64,000 bases of DNA, taken from Yarrowia lipolytica (Eukaryota > Ascomycota > Dipodascomycetes > Dipodascales). The stretch spans positions 1,116,001 through 1,180,000 of the forward strand of contig NC_090772.1 in NCBI RefSeq assembly GCF_001761485.1, written 5' to 3'. Position 1 is the first letter of the stretch, and every line of letters starts with the position of its first letter. A model generated the notes under the pieces. The model made no database searches and had not been told where the DNA came from. It was given only the letters and a program-made list of their open reading frames with translations. The translations under genes and the position numbers were made by a program. Positions 6,291-59,637 of this stretch are shown here, piece by piece.

Positions 6291-7415
6291 TTACAGAGGA
6301 CCCTGAACAGGTTGAATATCACTCTTATCAGTATAGAGAGCCTGAGCAAAGCCTAGCTTGTAGTCCTCCAAGTCGAACACTGCGTATGCGTTTCGGAGAA
6401 ACGAGTCGCCCAGAATACTGATGCCGTCATAGGTTTCGCTGGAAACCAAACCAAAGTAGCAGCCGGTATCACTTTGGTTGCCTGACAGGCGCGAAATGGG
6501 AACCACCATGGTCTCTGGGTGTGCATGGATAGTTCCGTTGGGCAGGTTGAAACTGATGGACGGCTCGGCGTTGCAATCGATGGTGTACACCCCCAGATCA
6601 GGTATCCAGGAGCCCACCTGGACCGTGCGAGTAAGATGCTGGAACACGTCGTCGGGGATCAGGGTAGCTACCGACCCAGTGTCTACGGCAAATGAGCTGT
6701 AGAGAGAAAAGTTGACGCCATTAACAGAAAAGTCGTCGACAAGAATGGAGGCCCCTCTAGAGGGGTCAGGAACTTTGTTCCATGCGAGGTCTCCGGAGAA
6801 CTTGGCGTGGTCGATTCCTCCTAGCAGAAAGGTGACTTCACTCGAGCTTGCAGAAGGGGAGAAGATTGAGAAAACTGCTCTGTCAATGTATCCCTGCTGC
6901 TTAGAAGCGAACACAAAGTTGGGATAGGTCTCTCCATCGTCGGCGGAGCTTTCCTGCTCTTCGAAGGAGACTCCAAAGATGCCTCCATCTTCGGTTTGCA
7001 CGGTTCCAAATGAAAACTGGGGCAGGGTAACAGACCCCACAGTGAGGGTATCAGAGACCCAGTTTCCTCTATTGTTGGGATCACCAATGTAACCAACATC
7101 AAAGTTGTTGTTTAGCAAGCTGTAGGTGGAAGAGGCGTCGGCGTCGAAAGCTCCCGCAGTAGCTGGACATTGGCCACTGCACTGTTGGTCTGGGGCAGTT
7201 GGGACCCACAGATCCGCTGATCCAGTGTCGAAGGTGACTTCAAACTTCTGTGGGGGGGTCCCCAGAGTGATGTTGGTGTACAAGTACCGATCGGTCTTTC
7301 CATCAGCAGCCCTGATGGTTTCGTACTTCGAGGCCAGTGAGTAAGACACAACCTTGGGGGAAGTTGGAGCAGCTACTGCTAGAGCAGACAGCAAAAGAAG
7401 GGAATAGGTCAACAT
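6291..7415 (-). CDS. Secreted aspartyl (pepsin-like) protease
   Basis: This is a 374-residue pepsin-family (A1) endopeptidase. The open frame extends 72 codons further upstream, but a TATA-like element lies only about 42 bases before the ATG at 7415. That ATG begins a clean signal peptide (MLTYSLLLLSALAVAAP), so it is taken as the start. The two catalytic motifs are present: DTGS at residues 63-66 (FDTGSADLW) and DTGS at 245-248 (AVDTGSVATLI). The conserved C-terminal ILGDSFLRNAYAVFDLE is also present. The propeptide is very short. There is no Ser/Thr-rich tail or GPI signal, so the enzyme should be soluble and secreted rather than a yapsin anchored in the wall. It ends in SDIQPVQGPL, closely like the SNIQPVTGPLGN tail of the protease at 58480, so the two are paralogues. 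The substrate is unknown. Confidence 0.93.
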   Translation of the reverse strand: MLTYSLLLLSALAVAAPTSPKVVSYSLASKYETIRAADGKTDRYLYTNITLGTPPQKFEVTFDTGSADLWVPTAPDQQCSGQCPATAGAFDADASSTYSLLNNNFDVGYIGDPNNRGNWVSDTLTVGSVTLPQFSFGTVQTEDGGIFGVSFEEQESSADDGETYPNFVFASKQQGYIDRAVFSIFSPSASSSEVTFLLGGIDHAKFSGDLAWNKVPDPSRGASILVDDFSVNGVNFSLYSSFAVDTGSVATLIPDDVFQHLTRTVQVGSWIPDLGVYTIDCNAEPSISFNLPNGTIHAHPETMVVPISRLSGNQSDTGCYFGLVSSETYDGISILGDSFLRNAYAVFDLEDYKLGFAQALYTDKSDIQPVQGPL

Positions 7416-27280: not shown

Positions 27281-30200
27281 TTACATGAGGAAAACAATCA
27301 CAGGGATCAGGGCAAGACGAGAGAATTCCAAAGTTCCAGCTTTGGAACTCGGCTTTCGGGTGTGGAAGGGTCTGGGGATTGTCGTGTTGCCAGAAATGGC
27401 AGGAGAAGATGCAACAGGAGAGTTGGATGTGATTTCAGAGGTACCAGGAATGATGGGAGACTGGGGAATGCCTATGACGCTTCCCGGGGTCTCGGTCTTA
27501 GGATTCTCTGGAGACACAGTCAAGACAGACTTGATAGGAGTGCTTGGGAGGCTGGTGGGAGTCTTGTAAACGACAGTAGTGAGTGCCAGTGTCTTGTTGT
27601 CGACGACAGTAGTGACTGTGTTGACCTCAGTCTCGTGAGTAGGCACAGTCAAGGTGATGGTCTTGCGATTGATGACGGTGGTAAGAGTAGGCTCGGTTTG
27701 GGTAAGGGTCACACATTTGGTCTTGTCACATACAGTCTTGGTCATAGTGACGGGTTTGGTCTGGGTGGTGATAATGTGGTCGTCGCACACTGTCACGGTG
27801 AAAGTCTTATCATCAATAACAGTGACGATCTCCATGGCGTGAGTAGGAGGCGCGGAGAGAGTGACGGGAATGGCTGTGCAGGACTCGTTGTCGCAATGAG
27901 TAATGGTCTTGGTGATAGGGGCAAGGACAGTGACGGTGGATGTGACGTTGCATTCCTCCTTGTTGACAATGGAGACCTTGCCAGACACGGTGATGGTTTC
28001 GACACAGGCGGCGGGGGTGGAGCTGCTGGGAACCAGAGAGACTGGAGCAGAAAAACAGTTGTCTTTGAATACGGTGAATTCAACTCCAGAGACAGCGGCA
28101 ACTTCGGTTTCGATGCAGGGATTGGAAACTGTAGTCAGGCTCAAGTCGGTAGTGAGAACAGAAGGAGTTCCAGACACTGTGACAGGGTGTTCCACCATAA
28201 AGGGGTCGGAGGAGATGGGGTCGGAGGAGATGGGGGCGGAGGAGATGGGGAGCGGAGGATGGGAGCGGTGGAGACAGAGTCTGAGGACTCCTGACAAAAG
28301 TCAGAAGTGACGATTGTAGGGGTTCCAGAGATGGTGGCTGACTCAACAACATTGCAGGGATTTGGAGTAGTGGGAGCTGTGTTAGAAGAGGAAGTGGGAT
28401 CAAAGGCTGAGTCGCCGTGCTTACCAGATGTGGGTTCCATAGAAGATAACAGCTCTGTGAAAAGAGAAACTGTCTCTGTGGTTGGCTCGGAAGAGGGGAC
28501 AATTGAGGAGTCAGTGGTAGCCTTGATTGTTGAAGACAGAGCTGTGTTGTGTTAGTATGAAACGGAGGTTTGCGAAGCTGATCTATATACTCACTAGTAG
28601 AGGACTTGGAAGACGGGGTCGGGAAATCGGAAGAGGGGGTCGAAGAGGAAGTGGAGGTGGAAGACTCTGTTGTCGACTCAAGAGCAGAACTAGACCCAAC
28701 TGAGGAGCTAGATTCAACCGAGACTGACTCAGTGGTCTCCGTGACAGTAGTAGATTCAGATCCAGTAATGTGAACAGGTTCAGAACTAGAAAACAGTATA
28801 GTCACCGGAGCACTGGTAGATTCGGGGACTGGGGTCGTGGAGTTCACAAATGAGAATGCAGAGGGGGCGGTTGAGGTCAGGGGAGTGCTAGACACAACAG
28901 AAGAGCTGGGCTTGACAGAAGACGAAGACTCGGCAGAAGAGCTGGGCTCAAAAGAAGAGCTGGGCTTGACAGAAGACGAATACTCGACAGAAGACGAATA
29001 CTCAACCGAAGACAAAAGAACAACAGATGATTCAGTGGAAATCTCAGCAGAACTGGATGATTCCGGAATCGAAGAGCTAGGCTCGACAATGGAAGACAGG
29101 TCAGCGCTGGAAACTTCGCTAGACGAGATCTCAACAGCACTAGAGAGCTTTTTGGAAGTCGCGGGGATTGTAGTCTCGGAAGCACTGGAATACACAGGGA
29201 CGCTGGAGGTCCTGAGAATGCTAGATGAAGCCTCAGCAGTCTCCAGGAGAGAAGAAGAAGAGGGCTCACCAGTACTTGATGAGGGTCCCTCTGTAGATGA
29301 GATCATTACAGTAGTTGACCCAGCGGGAGTAAACTCATCAGTGGTACTAGCCTCAGTGGACGAGTGCAACTCAGTGGTGGATTCCACTAAGGAAGAGGGT
29401 TCAGAAAAGAGCTCAGAGTTAGGTTCCAACATAGTGGACTCAACAGTGGAAAAAGGCTCCGATATGGGCTCCTCAGTCTTGGGAGCTTCAGATTTTTCTA
29501 CTGAGGTAGTAGGGACAGGAGTGGGCTCGTAGGAAGACTCCATAGACGACTCAGTGGAAGACACCTCTGTGGTGGTTGCCTCCGTAGAAGTCGACGCTGG
29601 AGTAGGAGTAGGGGCAATAGTAGGTTCAGCACTGGAAGTTGGCTCCTCGCCTTCTCTGTAGGGAGGCAGAATAACTGAAGACTTTCTTCCCTCTCCATCA
29701 CCCTGACCTCCAGCATTAAGATCATTATCGGAATAGGGCGATTCCCAAAGTGCACCACCCTTAGCTGTTCCAGACCGGGACCAGGCTCCTCCAGTGTGCG
29801 TCCCAATCTCTCCACTAGCAGAAGAGCCCGCAGAAGAAGGATCAGAAGGAAATGGACCTCCATGTCCTTCCTCCCACAGCACCCAGTCCATGGCATTGGT
29901 GTATCTGTCTTGTCGGTACTGTAGATCCGACCAGAAAACAATCTGGACAGTCACATCGTCCTGGGGCACGTTCTCGAGGTACAGAGTGAACCCATCAGAA
30001 GCAAAGGAAGTCACCTTGACGTAAGGAGAGACATCCTTGACAATGTCAACCGTGTCGTAATCAAAAGTCTCCGTCAGACCCTTGAACATCTTGAGCTCCA
30101 TCTCGGCAATAAGTTTCTCTTGGCTCTGGTACACAGTTCCATCGTCATCCAGCTTGTCAACCACCTTGATGCGATCATAAGGCGACGCAGGAACTTGAAT

Positions 30201-30737
30201 GGTCCATCTGATTCGGTTTCCTTCTCTCTCGGCAATCTTGTAAACATTGTCTTTTTGAACCACAGACTTGATGATGATTTCGTCCGAAAAGTCGCCCTTG
30301 TTGGTGTATGTGGTTATCGTGGTGGGTCCGGTTTCTCGCACAATTTCGTTGTTGAGAGAAGCCTGCAAAAAGAAGTCGCCGGTTATCTGGTAGTTCTTGT
30401 CTGAAACATAGTCGGTGTAAGTTGCGGTGAAATGGTGGCCGTCGTTGGTGATTCTCATTATGTCAACTCCTTGGGGATCCTTCACCAGGAAGTCGTAGGA
30501 ATCAACATCTGCAACATTCAGTTTTTCGTCCAAATCAAAGGTGAAAAAGTCGCCGGGATCGACGTGATCCTGCTCGGGAGACAGGGCAAAGGTGTAGTCC
30601 AGCTCCCATTTGCTTCGGGCAACGCCTTCCTTGTTGGAAACATCGTCGGCTTGTCCGATCGCAAACGACGTGATTGGAGACGCAACCTGTTTGGCCGCTA
30701 CAAGCGCAATCAAAAACGTGAGAGTTGTGAAACGCAT
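27281..30737 (-). CDS. GPI-anchored adhesin 1 (Als/MSCRAMM-like N-domain), frame broken in a repeat
   Basis: This cell-surface adhesin candidate has exon 1 at 30737-28595 and exon 2 at 28541-27281. It has a signal peptide (residues 1-16) and a cysteine-free globular N-domain to about residue 330. That domain carries DPGDFFTF at 60-67 and ATYTDYV at 105-111. KGL...DYDT...GFTLYLENVP and QYRQDRYTNAMDWVLWE recall Als N-domains. A long Ser-rich stalk follows (SSS, VEYSSS and KPSSS units). Exon 2 holds Cys-containing NPC...SGTP...DFC repeats and Thr-rich VTVCDDH-type repeats, then a C-terminal GPI signal (SRLALIPVIVFLM). Around 28240-28275, in a tandem CCCATCTCCTCCG tract, the frame changes by one base. 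This could be a sequencing or assembly error in the repeat, or a real break. Its paralogue is at 50053. Confidence 0.85.
28542..28594 (-). other. Intron of adhesin 1
   Basis: 53 bases: 5' GTGAGT, branch-like ACTAAC, 3' CACAG. Removing it joins the Ser-rich stalk to the Cys-repeat part in frame (ACT A / CT CTG). The adhesin 2 intron sits at the same boundary. Confidence 0.8.
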
Positions 30738-36143: not shown

Positions 36144-38171
36144 ATGAAGCTCTCACTCATTCTTGCGGCTCTTGCCACGTCCGCTTCGTCCTTGAAGACG
36201 GTCACTTTCAAGGATGCGACTGGCAACAATGTCTCGTATGTTGAGAAGCCGACTTTTGACCAAAAGAAGGTCGATGCCTACGTTCTTCAGACCGAACAGA
36301 TTGTCAATTCCACCCACATGGACAAGTGTGGCAAGTGCCTGACCGCCATTGCTCTCGGCAAGCAGGCTGCGTTGAACGGAGATGTGCAGCTCATTCCTGC
36401 AGTGCTTACCAAGCTGTGCAAAATGTACAAGTTCTCCAAGACATGTGACACCGACTATGGAGCCGAAACTACTGGCTACGACACCGATGGAACCCATGCA
36501 GCCCAGACTCTCACTCTCATTGACGACCCTTACGGCACTGACGGCCAGTATCTCTGCTACTACAAGGTGAACCAGGCGTGTCCTCTTCCTGAGTTGCCCA
36601 AGTTTGATCTCAAGGCCCTGGGGTGGTGGGGCGACAAGCCTGACAATGTTACTGTTCCCAAATCCGAAAACAAGACCTTCAACGTGGCGCATCTTAGTGA
36701 CCTTCATATTGATCTGCGGTACGAGATGGGTGCCGAGGCCAACTGCACAGAAGGAGGAAAGATGTGTTGTACCCCGGATCAGTTCAACAAGGGCGCTCGA
36801 GCTGCGGGTCTACAAGAGGTCGTTGTTCCCGCTCAGAAATACGGCATGTACACTTGTGACGTGCCTCCTCCTATGATTGACTTGACTCTTCAGACAGTCG
36901 GACAGTTTGCCAAGGAGAAGGAGTTCGAGTTTGCCATTTTCACGGGCGACATGGTTTCCCACGATGTGGCGTCACAAACCAACCTGGCCAATACAGCTCT
37001 GTCTGAAGAAGCCATTTACCACGCCTTCAAAAAGTACATGGGGGATGTGCCTGTCTTTATGACCTATGGTAACCACGATACTTTCCCCTACGGCCAACTG
37101 GCTCAGCACAAGAGTGGCTACGGAGGCTACTTTGTGTGGAATGACCAGCTGTCTGCTCAGCTATGGAAAGACTATGGCTGGATTGATGCCGAAGCCGAGC
37201 AGCAGGCTATTCATACCTATGGATCTTTTGCCACCACTACCAAGAGAGGTCTCCGGGTCATTTCTCTGGACTCCAACCTCTGGTACAAGAAGAACTTTTA
37301 CAACTTCTGGAACACCTCCACCGACCCTGACCCCTCTGGACTGTTCCGATTCCTGTCAGATGAGCTGCTGGAGTGCGAGAAGACCGGTCAGCGAGCTTGG
37401 CTCATGGCACATATTCCTCCTGGCGGAAACATGGACAACTCTTTGGCTCACTCTACTGAAATCATCCGCCAGATCGTCAGCCGATTCTCCAACACCATTG
37501 CCGGCCTCTTCTTCGGTCACGTGCACGAGGATCAGTTCAACGTCTGGTACGCAGGAAACGGATCCACCAACACTGTTGACAACGCTCTTCAAATTGCCTT
37601 CCTTGGGCCCTCCGTCACTCCTCTCACTTACTACAACCCTGCCTGGAGATACTACGAGGTGGACACCAAGACTTTTGAAGTCATGAACAGTCACACCTAC
37701 TACGCCAAGCTCAACGAAAGCTTTGCTTTCGACTTTGAGCACCCTGTTGAGAAGACTATCGGCAACTTCTCGTACCTCGGCTATCCTCAGATTACCAACA
37801 TCTCTTCTGAGGACGTTAACGGAACCGCTCCTGTATATCATTACGAGTACAATGCTCGAGAAGCCTATGATCCCGATCACGAGTGGCCTGCTAATGCTCC
37901 CCTTAATGCCACCTTCTGGCATAAGGCTGTCGATTATATCGTCAACCGAAACGAAACTCGAGACTTGTTCCTCAAGTATGAGTACCGACAATCGCCGTAC
38001 GTCCCCAAGTGTGCCGACGATAACTGTCTCGCAAACGTCTATTGCTTCCTGTCTTCAGGAACCGTCCCCCAGGTGGTGGAGTGCCAGAAGAACCACAAGG
38101 GCTTTAAGAAACAGATCTACATCAAGAGAGATGGTACCTATGGAGATGAGCCGGAGCATCATCATCACTAA
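36144..38171 (+). CDS. Secreted acid-sphingomyelinase-like phosphodiesterase
   Basis: This is a 675-residue secreted metallophosphoesterase of the acid sphingomyelinase family, which hydrolyses sphingomyelin-type lipids or, in fungal relatives, other phosphodiester or phosphate substrates. It has a signal peptide at 1-16. A saposin-B-like region with paired Cys lies at about 59-120 (DKCGKCLTAI ... LTKLCKMYKFSKTC). The calcineurin-like metal sites are complete and in order: SDLHID, FTGDMVSHD, YGNHDTFP, AHIPPGG and GHVHEDQF. Many N-x-S/T sites agree with secretion. The last six residues are PEHHHH, a natural His run. ATG 36144 follows a good TATA box and CACC context. Substrate not determinable from sequence. 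Confidence 0.92.
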   Translation: MKLSLILAALATSASSLKTVTFKDATGNNVSYVEKPTFDQKKVDAYVLQTEQIVNSTHMDKCGKCLTAIALGKQAALNGDVQLIPAVLTKLCKMYKFSKTCDTDYGAETTGYDTDGTHAAQTLTLIDDPYGTDGQYLCYYKVNQACPLPELPKFDLKALGWWGDKPDNVTVPKSENKTFNVAHLSDLHIDLRYEMGAEANCTEGGKMCCTPDQFNKGARAAGLQEVVVPAQKYGMYTCDVPPPMIDLTLQTVGQFAKEKEFEFAIFTGDMVSHDVASQTNLANTALSEEAIYHAFKKYMGDVPVFMTYGNHDTFPYGQLAQHKSGYGGYFVWNDQLSAQLWKDYGWIDAEAEQQAIHTYGSFATTTKRGLRVISLDSNLWYKKNFYNFWNTSTDPDPSGLFRFLSDELLECEKTGQRAWLMAHIPPGGNMDNSLAHSTEIIRQIVSRFSNTIAGLFFGHVHEDQFNVWYAGNGSTNTVDNALQIAFLGPSVTPLTYYNPAWRYYEVDTKTFEVMNSHTYYAKLNESFAFDFEHPVEKTIGNFSYLGYPQITNISSEDVNGTAPVYHYEYNAREAYDPDHEWPANAPLNATFWHKAVDYIVNRNETRDLFLKYEYRQSPYVPKCADDNCLANVYCFLSSGTVPQVVECQKNHKGFKKQIYIKRDGTYGDEPEHHHH

Positions 38172-50052: not shown

Positions 50053-53000
50053 ATGAAGATCACTCTAGCGTTTCTGCTTTCAGTGGTAGCTGCCAAACAG
50101 GTGGCGTCTCCTATCACCTCCTTTGCTATGGGTCAGGCCAATGACGTCAGCAACAAGGAGGGCTATGCCGGCAGCAAATGGGAGCTTGATTACACCTTTT
50201 CTCTCCGTCCCGAGCAGGATGGTGTTGTTCCCGGCGACTTCTTCACCTTTGACGTTGATAACAAGCTCAGTCTTGAAGCAGGCAACTATGACTTTATGGT
50301 GAAGGATCCCAGCGGCAACGACATTATGCGAATTGCCAATGAGGGTCACACCTTCACAGCTACCTACACCGACTATGTGGAGGATAAGAACCACCAGATC
50401 TCTGGCGACTTTTTCATGCAGGCCACTCTCTCTTCTTCTCAAATCTCTGGACCCGGCGCTTACACCGTCACCACCTACTCCGAGGGCAAGTCTTTCTCCG
50501 ATACAATCTATATCAAGGCTGCGGTTGAGACTTCCGGCGCCTACAAGTTTGCCCAGCGTGAAAATAACCGAATCAAGTGGACCATCCAGCTTCCTGCTTC
50601 TCCTTATGATCGAATGAAGGTTGTCGACAAGCTCGACGGTGATGGCTCTTACTACGGTTCTCCCGACGAGCTTCTCCAGGACATGTCTCTGCAGTTCTAC
50701 AAGGGTCTTACCCCCACCTGGGACTACGAGTCTGTCGAGAAGATTGACAATGTTGACCAGTACATCCAGCTTACCGACTTTGACAACTATGGCTTCACTC
50801 TGTACGTCAACAACGTTCCTCAGGATGACATCACTGTCCAGATCACCTTCTACTCCGACATCATGTACCGACAGGAACAGTACACCAACGCCATGGACTG
50901 GGTTTTGTGGGAGTACGGCTGGGGCCATCTTCCTGAGGGCACCGGTTCTGGAGAAGGTGAAGGTTCCGGTGGAAACATCAACAATGGTTACTTCCGAACT
51001 GGCCACACTACCGGTGGGGCTCCCTGGGAGTCCCAGGAGGGCGATTGGGACTTGGATGCTGGTGGAAACGGTGACGGTGAGGGTGGAAGAAGCTCCAAGC
51101 CTGTTCCCCCCTACCGATCCACCACTGCTGTCTCCAGCACCCCCGAGTCTTCCTCTATGCCCATCACTTCAGAGTCTTCTTCCTCTGAGCCCTCTTCCAC
51201 TATGGAGCCTTCTTCGTCTATTCCCGAGTCCAGCTCTGAGCCCACCTCTTCTGCTCCTGTGACCTCTTCTGAGGAGCCCTCATCCAGCATCCCCGAGACT
51301 TCTTCGGGCACCTGAGACTTCTTGGCACCTGAGACTTCTTCGGCCCCGGAGACTTCTTCGGCACCTGAGACTTCTCGGCACCTGAGATTTTCGACACCCG
51401 AGGCTTCTTCGGCCCCCCGAGACTTCTTCGGCACCCTGAGACTCTTCTTTCTGAGGAGCCCTCTAGCACTCCCGAGCCTACTCCTGAGCCTACTCCCGAG
51501 CCTTCCTCTACCATTGTGCCCTCCACTTTCTCGTTCTTCAACTCCAGCACTGTTCCTGAGACCACTTCTGCCCCCGTGACCGTAATTGAGTTCTCTTCCT
51601 CTGAGCCCATCCCCGAGTCATCCACAGTCGAGTCCTCCAGTGAGTCCTCCAGTGTCCCTATCACTTCCTCTGAGCCCTCTTCTAGCGCCCCCATCACCAC
51701 CATGGAGCCTTCTTGTGAGTATCACCCAACCTGCGTCCTAGATGCACATATGCATGCACCTGCACCACACCAAACTCAACTTTAACTAACCCAGCTTCTC
51801 CCTCTCCCACTCCCTCATCCACAGACCCTTGTCTCGAGACTGTGACGGTGACCGAGTCTGGAATCGAGTCGGTTATTGTCAACGACATCTGCTCCACTCC
51901 CGTGCCCACTTCCTCCGACCCCTGCGTTGTTGTCGAGTCCACCACCATCTCCGGCACTCCTACAGTCGTCACCTCTGACATCTGCCAGACCTCGTCCGCT
52001 CCTGTCAGCTCCACCGACCCCTGTCTTGAGACCGAGATTGTAACTGTGTCTGGAACTCCTACCACCGTTACCAATGACATCTGCTCTACTGCCCCCGTCA
52101 CCTCCGCTGATCCTTGTCTCGAGACTGAGGTGGTTACCGTCTCTGGTACTCCCACCACCGTGATTAACGACATCTGCGCCACGTCTTCGACCCCCGTTGA
52201 CGAGTGTCTCACTACCTCTGTTGTCACTGTCTCTGGAACTCCTACAACCGTCACCGAGGACATCTGCAAGACCACATCTGCACCTGTTACCTCTGTTGAT
52301 CCCTGCCTGGAGACCTCCGTCGTGACCATCTCCGGCACCCCCGTCACCGTGTCCAAGGATATTTGCTCCTCTACCATGTCGGACCCCTGTCTCGAGATTG
52401 CTACCGTCACCGTCTCCGGTATCGAGTCCACTGTCACCGATAACATTTGTTCCACAACCCTGTCTGTCACCGACCCCTGTCTCGAAACCGCTGTTGTGAC
52501 TGTCTCTGGTGTCGAGTCCACCGTCACCAACGACGTCTGCGAATCCCCCGCACCCACCTCGTCTAACCCCATCACATCTGCTGACCCCTGTCTCGAAACC
52601 GTTGTCGCATCCATCTCTGGCACCCCCACTACCGTGATTAACAACATCTGCACCACCTCTGCTCCCGTTGACCCTTGTCTTGAGACCGTCACTGCCTCGG
52701 TTTCTGGCTCCACTACCATTGTGACCAACGACATTTGTAAGACCGTTGATCCTTGCATCACGACCGAGGTTGTCACTGTTTCGGGCACTCCCGCCACTAT
52801 GACCAAGGACGTGTGCCAGACCACCGCTGACCCTTGCCTTGAGACTGCCATTGTGACTCTCTCGGGCACCCCTGCTACCGTCACCAAGGACATCTGCACT
52901 TCTGCCGACCCTTGTGTTGAGACCGAGGTTGTGACAGTTTCCGGAACCGAGTCCACCGTCACCAAGAACATCTGCATCACTTCTACCCCCGTTGCTGATC

Positions 53001-54138
53001 CTTGTGTTGTCACTGAGACCATCTCTTCCGGTACTATCACCGAGGTTATCACTCGGGACATTTGCACTCCTGCCCCTACTCCCGTTGTCACCTCCACTGT
53101 CACTGTGCCTGCCACCATCACCAAGACTATCACTGTCTGCGAAGAGGAGGTTTGCACTACCATTCCCGTTACTTTGACCACTGCCCCCGTTCTCTCCACC
53201 ACCGAGATTGTTACTGTGGTTGACAAGAAGACCGTGACCATCACTGTGTGCGACGAGGACTTTGAGACTGTCACCCCTACCCCCGAGGTGACCACCAAGA
53301 CTGTGGTTGTTACCAAGCCCGTCACCCTCACCGAGACTGTCTGTGACGAGATTGACTGCACCACTATCCCCGTGACTGTTACTCCTACTGAGCCCACCCA
53401 AACTCTGACCACTATCATCGAGAACAAGACCATTACTCTGACTCTCGAGACTCCCGTCGTCGAGGTTGAGACCGAGACTGTAGTTGTTGACGTCCCTGCT
53501 TCCAAGGTCACCCCCGTGCCCGAGGCTCCTGCTTCCAAGCCTATTACTCAGACTATCACTACTGTGATCGAGGACAAGACCCTGACTATTACTCAGGAGA
53601 CCATTGTGCCTATTATTCCTGTCGCCACTCGACCCGTTCAGTCTGTTGTTCCTCAGGTTCCTGTTGAGCCCGCCCAGCCCGCTAAGTCCGACTCTCCTGT
53701 TATGCCTACTCCCGAGCAACCTACTCCCGAGACTCACATTCAGCCTGAGACTCCCGTCCACCCAGAGCTTGTTACTCCGAGACTCCCGTCAACCCTGTGT
53801 CCCTGTGCAGCCCTGTTCCTGTTCCTGAGACTCCCGAGAGATCCCGTCAACCCTGATTCCCTGTGCAGCCTGTTTCCTGTTCCTTAACTCCCGAGACTCC
53901 CCATCAACCCTGATGTCCTGTGCCAGCCTGTTCCTGTTCCTGAACTCCCCATTACCCCGAATCTCCTGAGTCTCCCAAGTCTCCTGTTGAGCCCGTCCCC
54001 GAGACTCCTCAGGCCCCCATTAACCCCGTGCAGCCTCAGACTCCCGGCCCTAGCCCCGAGACTCCCCAGGCTAACTCTGGTTCTCGTCTGGCCGTCTCCG
54101 GTCTTGCCCTGATGCCTTTCGTGGCTCTGCTTCTTTAA
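50053..54138 (+). CDS. GPI-anchored adhesin 2 (Als/MSCRAMM-like N-domain, 14 Cys repeats), frame broken in repeats
   Basis: Paralogue of adhesin 1, with exon 1 at 50053-51714 and exon 2 at 51795-54138. The parts in order are: signal peptide (1-14); cysteine-free N-domain to about residue 310 with PGDFFTF at 60-66, TYTDYV at 104-109 and QYTNAMDWVLWE; a Gly-rich linker; and a Ser/Pro/Glu-rich stalk. Then come 14 repeats that begin DPC(L/V)ET and end with ND-IC, two Cys each (about 51830-53070). Thr-rich TITVC repeats, a Pro-rich PETPVNP region, and a GPI signal (GLALMPFVALLL) complete it. The frame shifts in the PETSSA repeat (about 51300-51500) and again in the PETPVNP repeat (about 53770-53990). 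The downstream exon 1 frame fits the intron phase. Either the tracts carry sequencing errors or the allele is broken. A role in cell-cell or surface adhesion is inferred. Confidence 0.85.
51300..51470 (+). repeat. PETSSAPETSSA coding repeat with frame disturbance
   Basis: Imperfect tandem copies of GAGACTTCTTCGGCACCT (18 bases, encoding ETSSAP). Missing bases in several copies put the two ends of exon 1 in different frames. Confidence 0.8.
51715..51794 (+). other. Intron of adhesin 2
   Basis: 80 bases: 5' GTGAGT, branch site CTAAC four bases before the 3' AG (ACTAACCCAG). It joins TCT T to CT TCT in frame and lies at the same stalk/Cys-repeat boundary as in adhesin 1. The very short branch-to-AG distance is typical of Yarrowia introns. 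Confidence 0.88.
51826..53080 (+). repeat. Fourteen Cys-pair coding repeats in adhesin 2
   Basis: Fourteen units starting DPC(L/V)ET (one is DECLTT), a central SGT or SGIES turn, and an IC or VC end, with variable Ser/Thr/Pro spacers. Adhesin 1 has only about four related units, so the array has expanded or contracted since duplication. Confidence 0.88.
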
Positions 54139-58479: not shown

Positions 58480-59637
58480 ATGCTCTTCTCCACCACTCTT
58501 CTAGCTTCCATTGTGTCGCTTGCTCTGGCTGCTCCCAGCACCCCCAAGGTGGTCACTTTTCCAGTCACCAAGCACCACAGAGACTCCAAGTTTGCCCAGG
58601 CCCACCTGCATACCCGACAGACTCCTGTTTCCATCGCCAACCAGCAGGATTATTACTCCATTGCCCTGGGCCTGGGAACCCCTGTCCAGAACTTCAACGT
58701 TCTTCTGGACACAGGATCATCTGATCTGTGGGTCTACAATGTCACTGACACTAACGATTGCAAAAAAGGCGGCTGTGCTTTCACTGGTCAGTACAACGAC
58801 GCTTTGTCCAGTTCTTACGTCTTCCTCAACGACGACTACTCCATTCATTACGTGTCTGGAAGCGCCTACGGCAACTGGGGAACTGAGACGTTGACCGTCG
58901 GAGACATTACTCTCGAGGGCTTCCAGTTTGCTTGCGCCAACAATGCCGGAGGACAAGTTGGAGTCATGGGCATCTCTGTGGAGAATGATGAGTCGATCCA
59001 GCCTTATCAGAACACCTATCCCAACTTCCCTGTGGCTCTCCAGAATGCCGGCTACATTGATAGACTGGTATACTCATTGTACTTGGACTCTCAGACCGCT
59101 ACCAGCGGAACATTCCTACTAGGAGGTATTGATTATGCCAAGTTCAGCGGCTCTCTGGTCTACCTGCCTCTTGCGGATTCAGGTGGAATGGACCTCAACT
59201 ACAACAGTATCTCCTATAACGGCAAGGACTACGCAGGTTCGGGTACTGCCACTCTTGACTCAGGAACCTCCTACACTTATATTCCCGACCAGGCTTTCCA
59301 AGCCCTTGCTTCTGCTCTCAAGCTTGGAGCCCTTTCCACCGGAGGCACTGGTCTTAACTACATTGACTGCGACTCCGATGTGACTATCGAGTTTGGTTTT
59401 GAGGGTGTCACTATTGTCGCCCAATCTTCTCAGCTAGTTATCCCCGAAAGTGACGGCAAGTGTGTCTTTGGTATCCAGTCCGACAGCCAGTCTGAAGGAT
59501 ACGATCTTTTCGGAGACACTTTCCTGCGAAATGCTTATGTCGTCTACGACCTGCAGGATTCTGTTATCGGTCTTGCCCAGGCCGAGTACACCACCAGTTC
59601 CAACATTCAGCCGGTCACCGGACCTCTTGGTAACTGA
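58480..59637 (+). CDS. Secreted aspartyl (pepsin-like) protease, second copy
   Basis: A 385-residue A1-family endopeptidase. It has a signal peptide MLFSTTLLASIVSLALAAP and a propeptide to about residue 48 without a dibasic Kex2 site. Catalytic DTGS is at 77-80 (LLDTGSSDLWVYN) and DSGT at 260-263 (ATLDSGTSYTYI). The A1 strand DLFGDTFLRNAYVVYDLQ is near the C-terminus. It shares APSTPKVV after the signal peptide, GYIDR..YS, FLLGGIDYAKFSG and the NIQPVTGPL tail with the protease at 6291. There is no GPI signal, so it should be soluble and extracellular. Y. lipolytica secretes an acid protease of this type (Axp1), but I cannot say that this is it. Confidence 0.94.
   Translation: MLFSTTLLASIVSLALAAPSTPKVVTFPVTKHHRDSKFAQAHLHTRQTPVSIANQQDYYSIALGLGTPVQNFNVLLDTGSSDLWVYNVTDTNDCKKGGCAFTGQYNDALSSSYVFLNDDYSIHYVSGSAYGNWGTETLTVGDITLEGFQFACANNAGGQVGVMGISVENDESIQPYQNTYPNFPVALQNAGYIDRLVYSLYLDSQTATSGTFLLGGIDYAKFSGSLVYLPLADSGGMDLNYNSISYNGKDYAGSGTATLDSGTSYTYIPDQAFQALASALKLGALSTGGTGLNYIDCDSDVTIEFGFEGVTIVAQSSQLVIPESDGKCVFGIQSDSQSEGYDLFGDTFLRNAYVVYDLQDSVIGLAQAEYTTSSNIQPVTGPLGN

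What the first reader, a model, noticed from the sequence alone, without database searches (positions are those of the whole stretch)
50053..50985. Cysteine-free adhesin domain with a staphylococcal-latch-like TYTDYV motif in a yeast GPI protein
Seen: both adhesins have an N-domain of about 300 residues without cysteine, containing PGDFFTF and, about 40 residues later, FTATYTDYV followed by a charged turn and GDFF. Known: Als adhesins have NPGDTFTL-type motifs and an Ig-like fold held by disulfides. Staphylococcal MSCRAMMs (ClfA, SdrG) carry a TYTFTDYV motif in the latching cleft of their N2 domain and lack cysteines. A second region, KGL..WDY..GFTLYVNNVP..QYTNAMDWVLWE, recalls Als. Inference: a domain intermediate between Als and bacterial MSCRAMM adhesins, arising by convergence, deep homology or transfer.
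Basis: partly seen in the sequence, partly recalled or inferred. Interest (0 to 1): 0.75.

Follow-up and report, generated by a model that had tools for sequence, protein, structure and literature searches.

The report
Yeast adhesin with bacterial-type gripping head
Two yeast cell-surface proteins carry a cysteine-free gripping head whose first half is related by sequence, and not only in shape, to heads that staphylococci and related bacteria use to hold on to their targets, which bears on whether yeast and bacterial adhesins share ancestry.

Summary
Two yeast adhesin heads (A: 50053.. on +; B: 30737.. on -) are 60% identical, cysteine-free, and carry TYTDYV at residues 104 (A) and 106 (B). 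The first half scores as Pfam Big_8, the MSCRAMM N2 domain (4.5e-12 and 1.6e-12; 46.5 and 47.9 bits, cut-off 22.9); shuffles, other window ORFs and profile-profile tests agree. TYTDYV aligns with the bacterial trench motif. An AlphaFold model with 25 bacterial rows (pLDDT 82.7) matches CNA, SdrG, SdrE, a Komagataella zonadhesin and Als in the PDB; a low-confidence model without bacterial rows matched staphylococcal MSCRAMMs and Als. Sequence searches of the PDB with yeast rows alone found neither. The second domain is not significant by sequence. It keeps the Lys/Asp/Asn columns that form an isopeptide bond in bacterial Collagen_bind domains (3 of 400 shuffles do as well); a candidate latch follows. 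The Als Pfam profile hits some bacterial Big_8 proteins over the same stretch, a bridge between the groups. Pure convergence is unlikely for the first domain; transfer versus old common ancestry is unresolved. Function (peptide gripping in the cleft between the domains) is inferred.

The parts
50053..51315 (+). gene A, first open stretch: start of the protein (signal-like hydrophobic start), two-domain head, Gly-rich linker, start of the Ser/Thr stalk
50173..50448 (+). A: first Ig-like domain (N2-type), residues 41-132, Pfam Big_8
   Evidence: 4.5e-12, 46.5 bits, cut-off 22.9
50230..50250 (+). A: PGDFFTF, residues 60-66, at the conserved GD of Big_8 proteins
50362..50379 (+). A: TYTDYV, residues 104-109, at the position of the bacterial trench motif
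50500..50922 (+). A: second Ig-like domain (N3-type), about residues 150-290; fold from model, not significant by sequence alone
50545..50547 (+). A: Lys165, my choice for the first residue of a candidate isopeptide triad (MAFFT puts Lys155 in the column instead)
50626..50628 (+). A: Asp192, candidate catalytic residue of the triad
50887..50889 (+). A: Asn279, candidate second bond residue of the triad
51058..51084 (+). A: AGGNGDGEG, residues 336-344, candidate latch
51715..51794 (+). A: intron-like stretch GTGAGT...CTAACCCAG before the first PC repeat
54073..54138 (+). A: hydrophobic C-terminal tail with stop, GPI-signal-like by inspection
29691..30737 (-). gene B, two-domain head and linker
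30330..30608 (-). B: first Ig-like domain, residues 44-136, Pfam Big_8
   Evidence: 1.6e-12, 47.9 bits
30405..30422 (-). B: TYTDYV, residues 106-111
30237..30239 (-). B: Lys167, counterpart of Lys165 of A
30156..30158 (-). B: Asp194 of the candidate triad
29895..29897 (-). B: Asn281 of the candidate triad
29688..29714 (-). B: AGGQGDGEG, residues 342-350, candidate latch
28377..28594 (-). B: intron-like stretch GTGAGT...CTAACACAG, same relative place as in A
27281..27346 (-). B: hydrophobic C-terminal tail with stop, GPI-signal-like by inspection

Best explanation
The two genes encode native yeast cell-wall adhesins of the usual fungal layout (secretion signal, head, Ser/Thr stalk, cysteine repeats, GPI-type tail). 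The head is a pair of Ig-like domains of the MSCRAMM kind. The first domain is a member of the bacterial Big_8 (N2) family by sequence (shown). The second is an N3/collagen-binding-type partner by predicted fold and alignment (supported, not proven). The likely mode of action is that a peptide or chain of the partner surface docks in the cleft between the domains, and the Gly-rich segment after the second domain folds back along the TYTDYV strand of the first domain (dock-lock-latch or collagen-hug like; inferred). The head has no cysteines, so it is not held by disulfides. A Lys-Asn isopeptide bond in the second domain would do that job (inferred from three conserved columns).
For: Big_8 well over cut-off in both paralogs. 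hhalign of the yeast head against 7 bacterial heads: 97.4%, E 9.7e-12, 209 columns. First domain alone scores 63.1, best of 200 column shuffles 22.5. Bacterial profile on 414 window ORFs: 30.4 and 29.0 bits, next 2.2. Yeast profile against 8 bacterial genomes known to hold such genes: 6 of 8 match at E<=10, 5 of 8 at 2.3e-4 or better, and those five places are Big_8 adhesins. Both models find MSCRAMM and Als structures. Lys/Asp/Asn columns are 25 of 25 in the bacterial rows and kept in both yeast proteins, while the six other near-invariant second-domain columns are not; 3 of 400 shuffles do as well. Latch-like site in both. Intron-like stretches at the same place and GPI-like tails point to native yeast genes.
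Against: The second domain alone gives no significant match: the bacterial N3 profile does not list the yeast ORFs among its best five, hhalign 1.66% with 8 of 200 shuffles as good, no Collagen_bind or SdrG_C_C hit. PDB searches with yeast rows alone found no MSCRAMM, and tblastn of the heads against plasmids gave nothing better than E 0.6, that best hit being unrelated. TMq is only 0.34-0.43 with rmsd of 11 to 16 A over the pair, so the mutual placing of the domains is uncertain. Model 2 used bacterial rows; model 1, without them, had pLDDT 47.6. In the triad shuffles the Asp alone is matched in 157 of 400. The linker is Gly-rich, and in A another stretch scores above AGGNGDGEG. No ligand or binding data exist.
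Confidence: 0.72

Rival explanations
1. It is a diverged branch of the fungal Als/alpha-agglutinin family that lost its cysteines; its likeness to MSCRAMMs is the general fold likeness already known for Als.
For: Als9-2 and Als3 are among the listed PDB hits (8 of 50, 8 of 50). The Candida_ALS_N profile hits some bacterial Big_8 proteins, up to 1.7e-9, so Als and Big_8 are related.
Against: No Candida_ALS_N hit at E<=10, no Als chain at E<=10, no cysteines. Big_8 scores 46.5 and 47.9 bits directly.
Confidence: 0.3
2. Old horizontal transfer of an MSCRAMM head from a Gram-positive bacterium into this yeast line, fused to a fungal stalk.
For: Direct sequence match to Big_8 but not to Als; candidate isopeptide triad and latch as in the bacterial proteins.
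Against: Yeast pair on a branch of length 3.26 between two staphylococcal rows and the other bacterial rows, not nested; long branches meet there. GC3 (0.64, 0.58 against 0.59 in 11 window ORFs) and codon use are broadly host-like. No eukaryote collection could be searched, so presence in other yeasts is unknown.
Confidence: 0.3
3. Convergence: an unrelated beta-sandwich that acquired a TYTDYV motif.
For: The second domain has no significant sequence match.
Against: The first domain is significant over about 92 residues in both paralogs, far more than the motif.
Confidence: 0.07
4. Bacterial contamination or assembly chimera.
For: Pfam names the domain bacterial; both genes have frame breaks in repeats as assembled.
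Against: Two 60%-identical paralogs about 20 kb apart, intron-like stretches at matching places, fungal-type stalk, host-like codon use, eukaryotic neighbours.
Confidence: 0.01

Closest known systems
Gram-positive MSCRAMM heads with Big_8 + Collagen_bind (CNA, Cnm, lactic-acid-bacteria Cna-type adhesins; here the 25 bacterial rows of A9)
   Same: Big_8 by sequence, trench motif TYTDYV, two-domain fold, Lys/Asp/Asn columns, Gly-rich latch-like extension
   Different: Yeast second domain gives no Collagen_bind hit; about 34 more residues between the Asn and the latch-like site than in L004; GPI-type tail and Ser/Thr stalk where bacterial relatives scanned here have Cna_B or SpaA domains and, in some, an LPXTG anchor
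Staphylococcal Sdr/Clf family (SdrG, ClfA, SdrE)
   Same: Fold and trench motif
   Different: Their N3 model (SdrG_C_C) does not hit the yeast heads; anchoring differs
Candida Als adhesins (Als9-2, Als3)
   Same: Two-domain head on a GPI-anchored fungal stalk, same overall fold (layout of Als from PMC6308950 and PMC10144551, passages)
   Different: No direct sequence match; no cysteines in the yeast head
Komagataella pastoris zonadhesin in PDB 5fx8 (title seen only)
   Same: Yeast protein, rank 5, highest listed TMq (0.43)
   Different: Relation by sequence not tested; no paper on it is held

Membership tests
Pfam Big_8 (PF17961) | whole-protein score over the curated cut-off of 22.9 bits | tested here: met
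   46.5 and 47.9 bits
MSCRAMM | two tandem IgG-like domains (definition from PMC4850167, passage) | tested here: met
   by predicted fold only: model 2 and its PDB hits; second domain not confirmed by sequence
MSCRAMM | TYTFTDYVD-like motif in the first domain | tested here: met
   TYTDYV aligned with bacterial TYTDYV/TYTDFV and SdrE TFTDYV; the bacterial loci of A9 were fetched with patterns one of which holds this motif, so its invariance there is biased
MSCRAMM | latch extension after the second domain | tested here: inconclusive
   AGGNGDGEG / AGGQGDGEG; shuffled linkers reach B's best score in 122 of 5000 and A's in 47 of 5000, but A's best is another site
MSCRAMM | LPXTG sortase anchor | tested here: not met
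   no Gram_pos_anchor hit in the stretches scanned (parts of gene A's stalk were not scanned); the genes end in GPI-type hydrophobic tails
MSCRAMM | ligand binding by dock-lock-latch or collagen hug | not testable with these tools
   needs binding assays
CnaA-type isopeptide domain (Collagen_bind) | Lys, Asp, Asn triad in the core | tested here: inconclusive
   columns kept in both paralogs, 3 of 400 shuffles as good; Lys155 or Lys165 ambiguous; no coordinates to measure distances; reference residues Lys177 Asp210 Asn291 from PMC12617251 (passage)
CnaA-type isopeptide domain (Collagen_bind) | Pfam Collagen_bind hit | tested here: not met
   none in either yeast head at E<=10; in A9 27 of 27 rows hit Big_8 and 25 of 27 Collagen_bind
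Als (Candida_ALS_N) | Pfam PF11766 hit | tested here: not met
   none at E<=10
Als (Candida_ALS_N) | conserved cysteines forming disulfides | tested here: not met
   0 Cys in A's 347 residues; that Als has them is recalled
Fungal GPI-anchored adhesin | C-terminal GPI signal after a Ser/Thr stalk | tested here: inconclusive
   hydrophobic tails at 54073-54138 and 27281-27346, but frames are broken upstream as assembled and no GPI predictor was on hand

The most novel reading that the evidence does not exclude
A eukaryotic adhesin head sharing descent with Gram-positive MSCRAMMs that has kept the whole working kit: docking cleft, latch, and a self-forming Lys-Asn isopeptide bond in place of disulfides. 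It would be the first such bond in a native eukaryotic protein that I know of. Together with bacterial proteins that hit both Big_8 and Candida_ALS_N, it would show that yeast Als and bacterial MSCRAMM adhesins are one family rather than look-alikes.
Probability: 0.3. Interest if true: 0.85.

Novelty: new variant of a known kind. Interest (0 to 1): 0.6.

Why it matters
The likeness of Als and MSCRAMM heads is described as structural in the reviews seen (PMC10144551 section 10 and PMC6308950, passages). A yeast head that matches the bacterial family by sequence, and bacterial proteins that match the Als profile, turn 'look-alike or kin' into a question that trees and structures can answer. If the isopeptide bond is real it would be a counter-example to the 2025 survey, which judged its eukaryotic hits likely false positives or contamination (PMC12617251, passages), and would show a eukaryote using a bacterial mechanical lock at its surface.

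Tried and rejected
Direct sequence link to Als: not found. Direct link of yeast rows to MSCRAMM chains of the PDB: not found either at E<=10 (same); MSCRAMM chains appear only with profiles that hold bacterial rows, and Als chains not even then. Sequence link of the second domain alone to bacterial N3: tried by HMMER and hhalign, not significant. tblastn of the two heads against plasmids at E<=10: 1 of 2 and 9 of 10 records are Big_8-type or Ig-like adhesins, but E is 2 to 8 for them and the lowest E (0.6) is an unrelated Streptomyces protein; used only as a lead. Finding a donor: yeast profile at E<=0.001 over 398 genomes of the phylum of G004 (0), 396 of the phylum of G003 (2) and 398 of the phylum of G008 (1, G008 itself; this draw overlaps the first), and at E<=0.01 over 197 of the order of G686 (3, two of them the same as before); no donor group stands out, and the first look loses weak matches: G004 matched at 3.6e-7 but not, and G686 did not ring for Candida_ALS_N although its protein does at 6e-5. 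First genome scan: 107 pattern matches, none confirmed. Structure model 1 had low confidence. NCBIfam gave nothing. Other Pfam matches of A were below cut-off: DUF2436 7e-4, BsuPI 0.043. Tree of 28 rows: yeast place unsure, long branches. The end of the head aligned badly when the linker was included, so model 2 used the head without the linker and the latch could not be tested in a model.

Full report
Setting. The window looks like a budding yeast, probably of the Yarrowia clade: the intron-like pattern GTGAGT...CTAAC...AG occurs at two places, one in each adhesin gene (that this is a Yarrowia habit is recalled), and scanned neighbours include a eukaryotic aspartyl protease, a protein kinase and two metallophosphoesterases. 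No whole genome is held and no eukaryote collection could be searched, so the organism is an inference.

Observation. Gene A begins at 50053 and is open to 51315. Gene B runs on the minus strand from 30737; its open frame as listed is 28080-30737. Their N-domains are 60% identical.

First domain. Pfam gives Big_8 (PF17961) at 4.5e-12 for A (residues 41-132) and 1.6e-12 for B (44-136), about twice the curated cut-off in bits; DUF2436, BsuPI and START matches were weaker and below their cut-offs. Big_8 is described as the domain of FnBPA, ClfA and ClfB (PMC9210967, passages). Candida_ALS_N, Collagen_bind and SdrG_C_C do not appear at E<=10. A profile-profile comparison of the yeast pair with seven lactic-acid-bacteria heads gives 97.4% and E 9.7e-12 over 209 columns. 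With 25 other bacterial rows the first domain alone scores 63.1, against 22.5 for the best of 200 column shuffles. The bacterial profile finds the two yeast ORFs among 414 window ORFs at 30.4 and 29.0 bits; the next ORF has 2.2 and the best of 4000 shuffled heads 10.4. In the other direction the yeast profile, run over 8 bacterial genomes known to hold such genes, matches in 6 of 8 at E<=10 and in 5 of 8 at 2.3e-4 or better. Those five places (L049-L053) are Big_8 + Collagen_bind proteins; the sixth (L054, E 0.0108) is an unrelated enzyme. Against this, PDB sequence searches with yeast rows alone found neither MSCRAMMs nor Als at E<=10, and tblastn against plasmids gave only E of 0.6 and worse.

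Second domain. By sequence alone it is not significant: the yeast ORFs are not among the five best of the bacterial N3 profile (best E 1.1), and hhalign gives 1.66% with 8 of 200 shuffles as good. The case rests on the fold and on three columns. Among columns identical in at least 24 of 25 bacterial rows, the yeast pair keeps the Lys, the Asp and the Asn of the second domain and not the six others there (alignment columns 194, 250, 251, 273, 286, 306). Lys-Asp-Asn is the isopeptide triad of Collagen_bind (Lys177, Asp210, Asn291 in 7LGR; PMC12617251, Table 1 passage). When the second domain is shuffled and realigned, both rows show K in 54, D in 157, N in 40, D and N in 17, and all three in 3 of 400 shuffles. 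MAFFT places Lys155 in the Lys column; Lys165, in the strand of model residues 148-155 just before the RIKWTIQL strand, fits the bacterial spacing better. That choice is my reading. Distances could not be measured, because no coordinates are given out.

Fold. Model 1, from the two yeast rows only, has pLDDT 47.6 and pTM 0.42. The 50 listed PDB hits are staphylococcal MSCRAMMs (42) and Als (8), best SdrG 4.3e-10. A model of such low confidence is weak evidence. Model 2, with 25 bacterial rows, has pLDDT 82.7 and pTM 0.62. Its 50 listed hits are led by CNA (4.8e-13), SdrG and SdrE, with a Komagataella zonadhesin at rank 5, Als9-2 from rank 18 (8 Als in all), and Gram-positive adhesins for the rest. 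TMq over the pair is 0.34-0.43, so the placing of the two domains relative to each other is uncertain. The structural aligner for a second look was not available.

Trench and latch. [quoted passage not shown] In the PDB search with the joint profile, TYTDYV aligns with TFTDYV of SdrE. The bacterial loci of A9 were fetched with patterns one of which holds the motif, so its invariance there is partly by selection; plasmid loci not so selected have TYTDFV, SYTDYV, TYTDYV, TLTDAV, TLADAV and TFTDYA in A4. From Asn279 it is 57 residues to AGGNGDGEG in A; B has AGGQGDGEG; bacteria have AGGxAxGY and the like. In B it is the best-scoring site of the whole 885-residue frame; in A it is second to another Gly-rich stretch. 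Shuffled linkers reach the best score in 122 of 5000 (B) and 47 of 5000 (A). It is a candidate, no more.

Bridge to Als. Of nine places found with the yeast profile and scanned with Pfam (L049-L056, L061), eight are Big_8 proteins, and two of these (L055, L056) also show Candida_ALS_N, at 6e-5 and 5.2e-5, just below its cut-off, over the same residues as Big_8 (at E<=0.001; 112 and 122 at E<=0.1). The Candida_ALS_N profile run over bacteria rings at E<=0.01 in 4 of 197 genomes of one order and in 3 of 199 genomes of a phylum, each with one match over the cut-off, and in 0 of 14 control genomes. Of those seven places six were scanned and all six are Big_8 proteins. Five show the Als hit again at E<=0.1: four over about profile positions 1-84 and one over 5-220; the best is L062, 1.7e-9 and 37.7 bits, and the other four are below the cut-off in this scan. 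L063 shows Big_8 without the Als hit; L064 was not scanned. Among the 27 rows of A9 three hit Candida_ALS_N at E<=10, best 0.0059. In 2018 Candida_ALS_N was described as confined to Saccharomycetales (PMC6308950, passage). The bridge is thus real but carried by few proteins.

Origin. The genes look native: intron-like stretches stand at the same place before the first PC repeat in both, the tails are GPI-like by inspection, and codon use is broadly like that of 11 other window ORFs. The 28-row tree puts the yeast pair on a branch of 3.26 between the two staphylococcal rows and the other 24, with a warning on long branches. Neither transfer nor old common ancestry can be chosen.

As assembled, the reading frame of A stops at 51313-51315 and changes again in the C-terminal repeats, and that of B changes in its repeat region. 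Whether these are assembly faults or real is unknown.

Literature. In ten searches no listed title or abstract opening reports Big_8 or an isopeptide bond in a fungal adhesin. Only open-licence PubMed Central papers are held and several listings were cut, so this is weak evidence of novelty. Adhesin-like genes of Yarrowia lipolytica were likened there to Flo11, Hyr1 and Aga1 (PMC8265631, passages). The fold likeness of Als and MSCRAMMs is well known (PMC10144551 and PMC6308950, passages).

Verdict. A real and somewhat surprising find: a new variant of a known kind of adhesin, with a first domain shown by sequence, a likely second domain, and a testable hint of an isopeptide bond in a eukaryote.

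Noticed in passing
51313-51460, about 53780-53960 (+) and about 28200 (-): Both adhesin genes change reading frame inside repeats as assembled; assembly faults in low-complexity DNA or decay. Not mended.
   Followed up: partly
about 51820-53100 (+) and 28376-27700 (-): Stalk of repeated units of the form PCxETxxVTVSGTxxTVTxDIC; no Pfam hit at E<=0.01 for the stretches scanned.
   Followed up: partly
6291-7415 (-) and 58480-59637 (+): Two aspartyl-protease-like secreted proteins lie on either side of the adhesin pair; only the second was scanned.
   Followed up: no
36144-38171 (+): A metallophosphoesterase with a signal-like start ends in a natural run of histidines (GDEPEHHHH).
   Followed up: no
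L062 1-1953 (-): A bacterial protein scores over the cut-off on both Big_8 and the fungal Candida_ALS_N profile over the same residues.
   Followed up: partly
PDB 5fx8 chain U: A Komagataella zonadhesin solved together with a lipoxygenase is among the best fold matches; its sequence was not compared here.
   Followed up: partly
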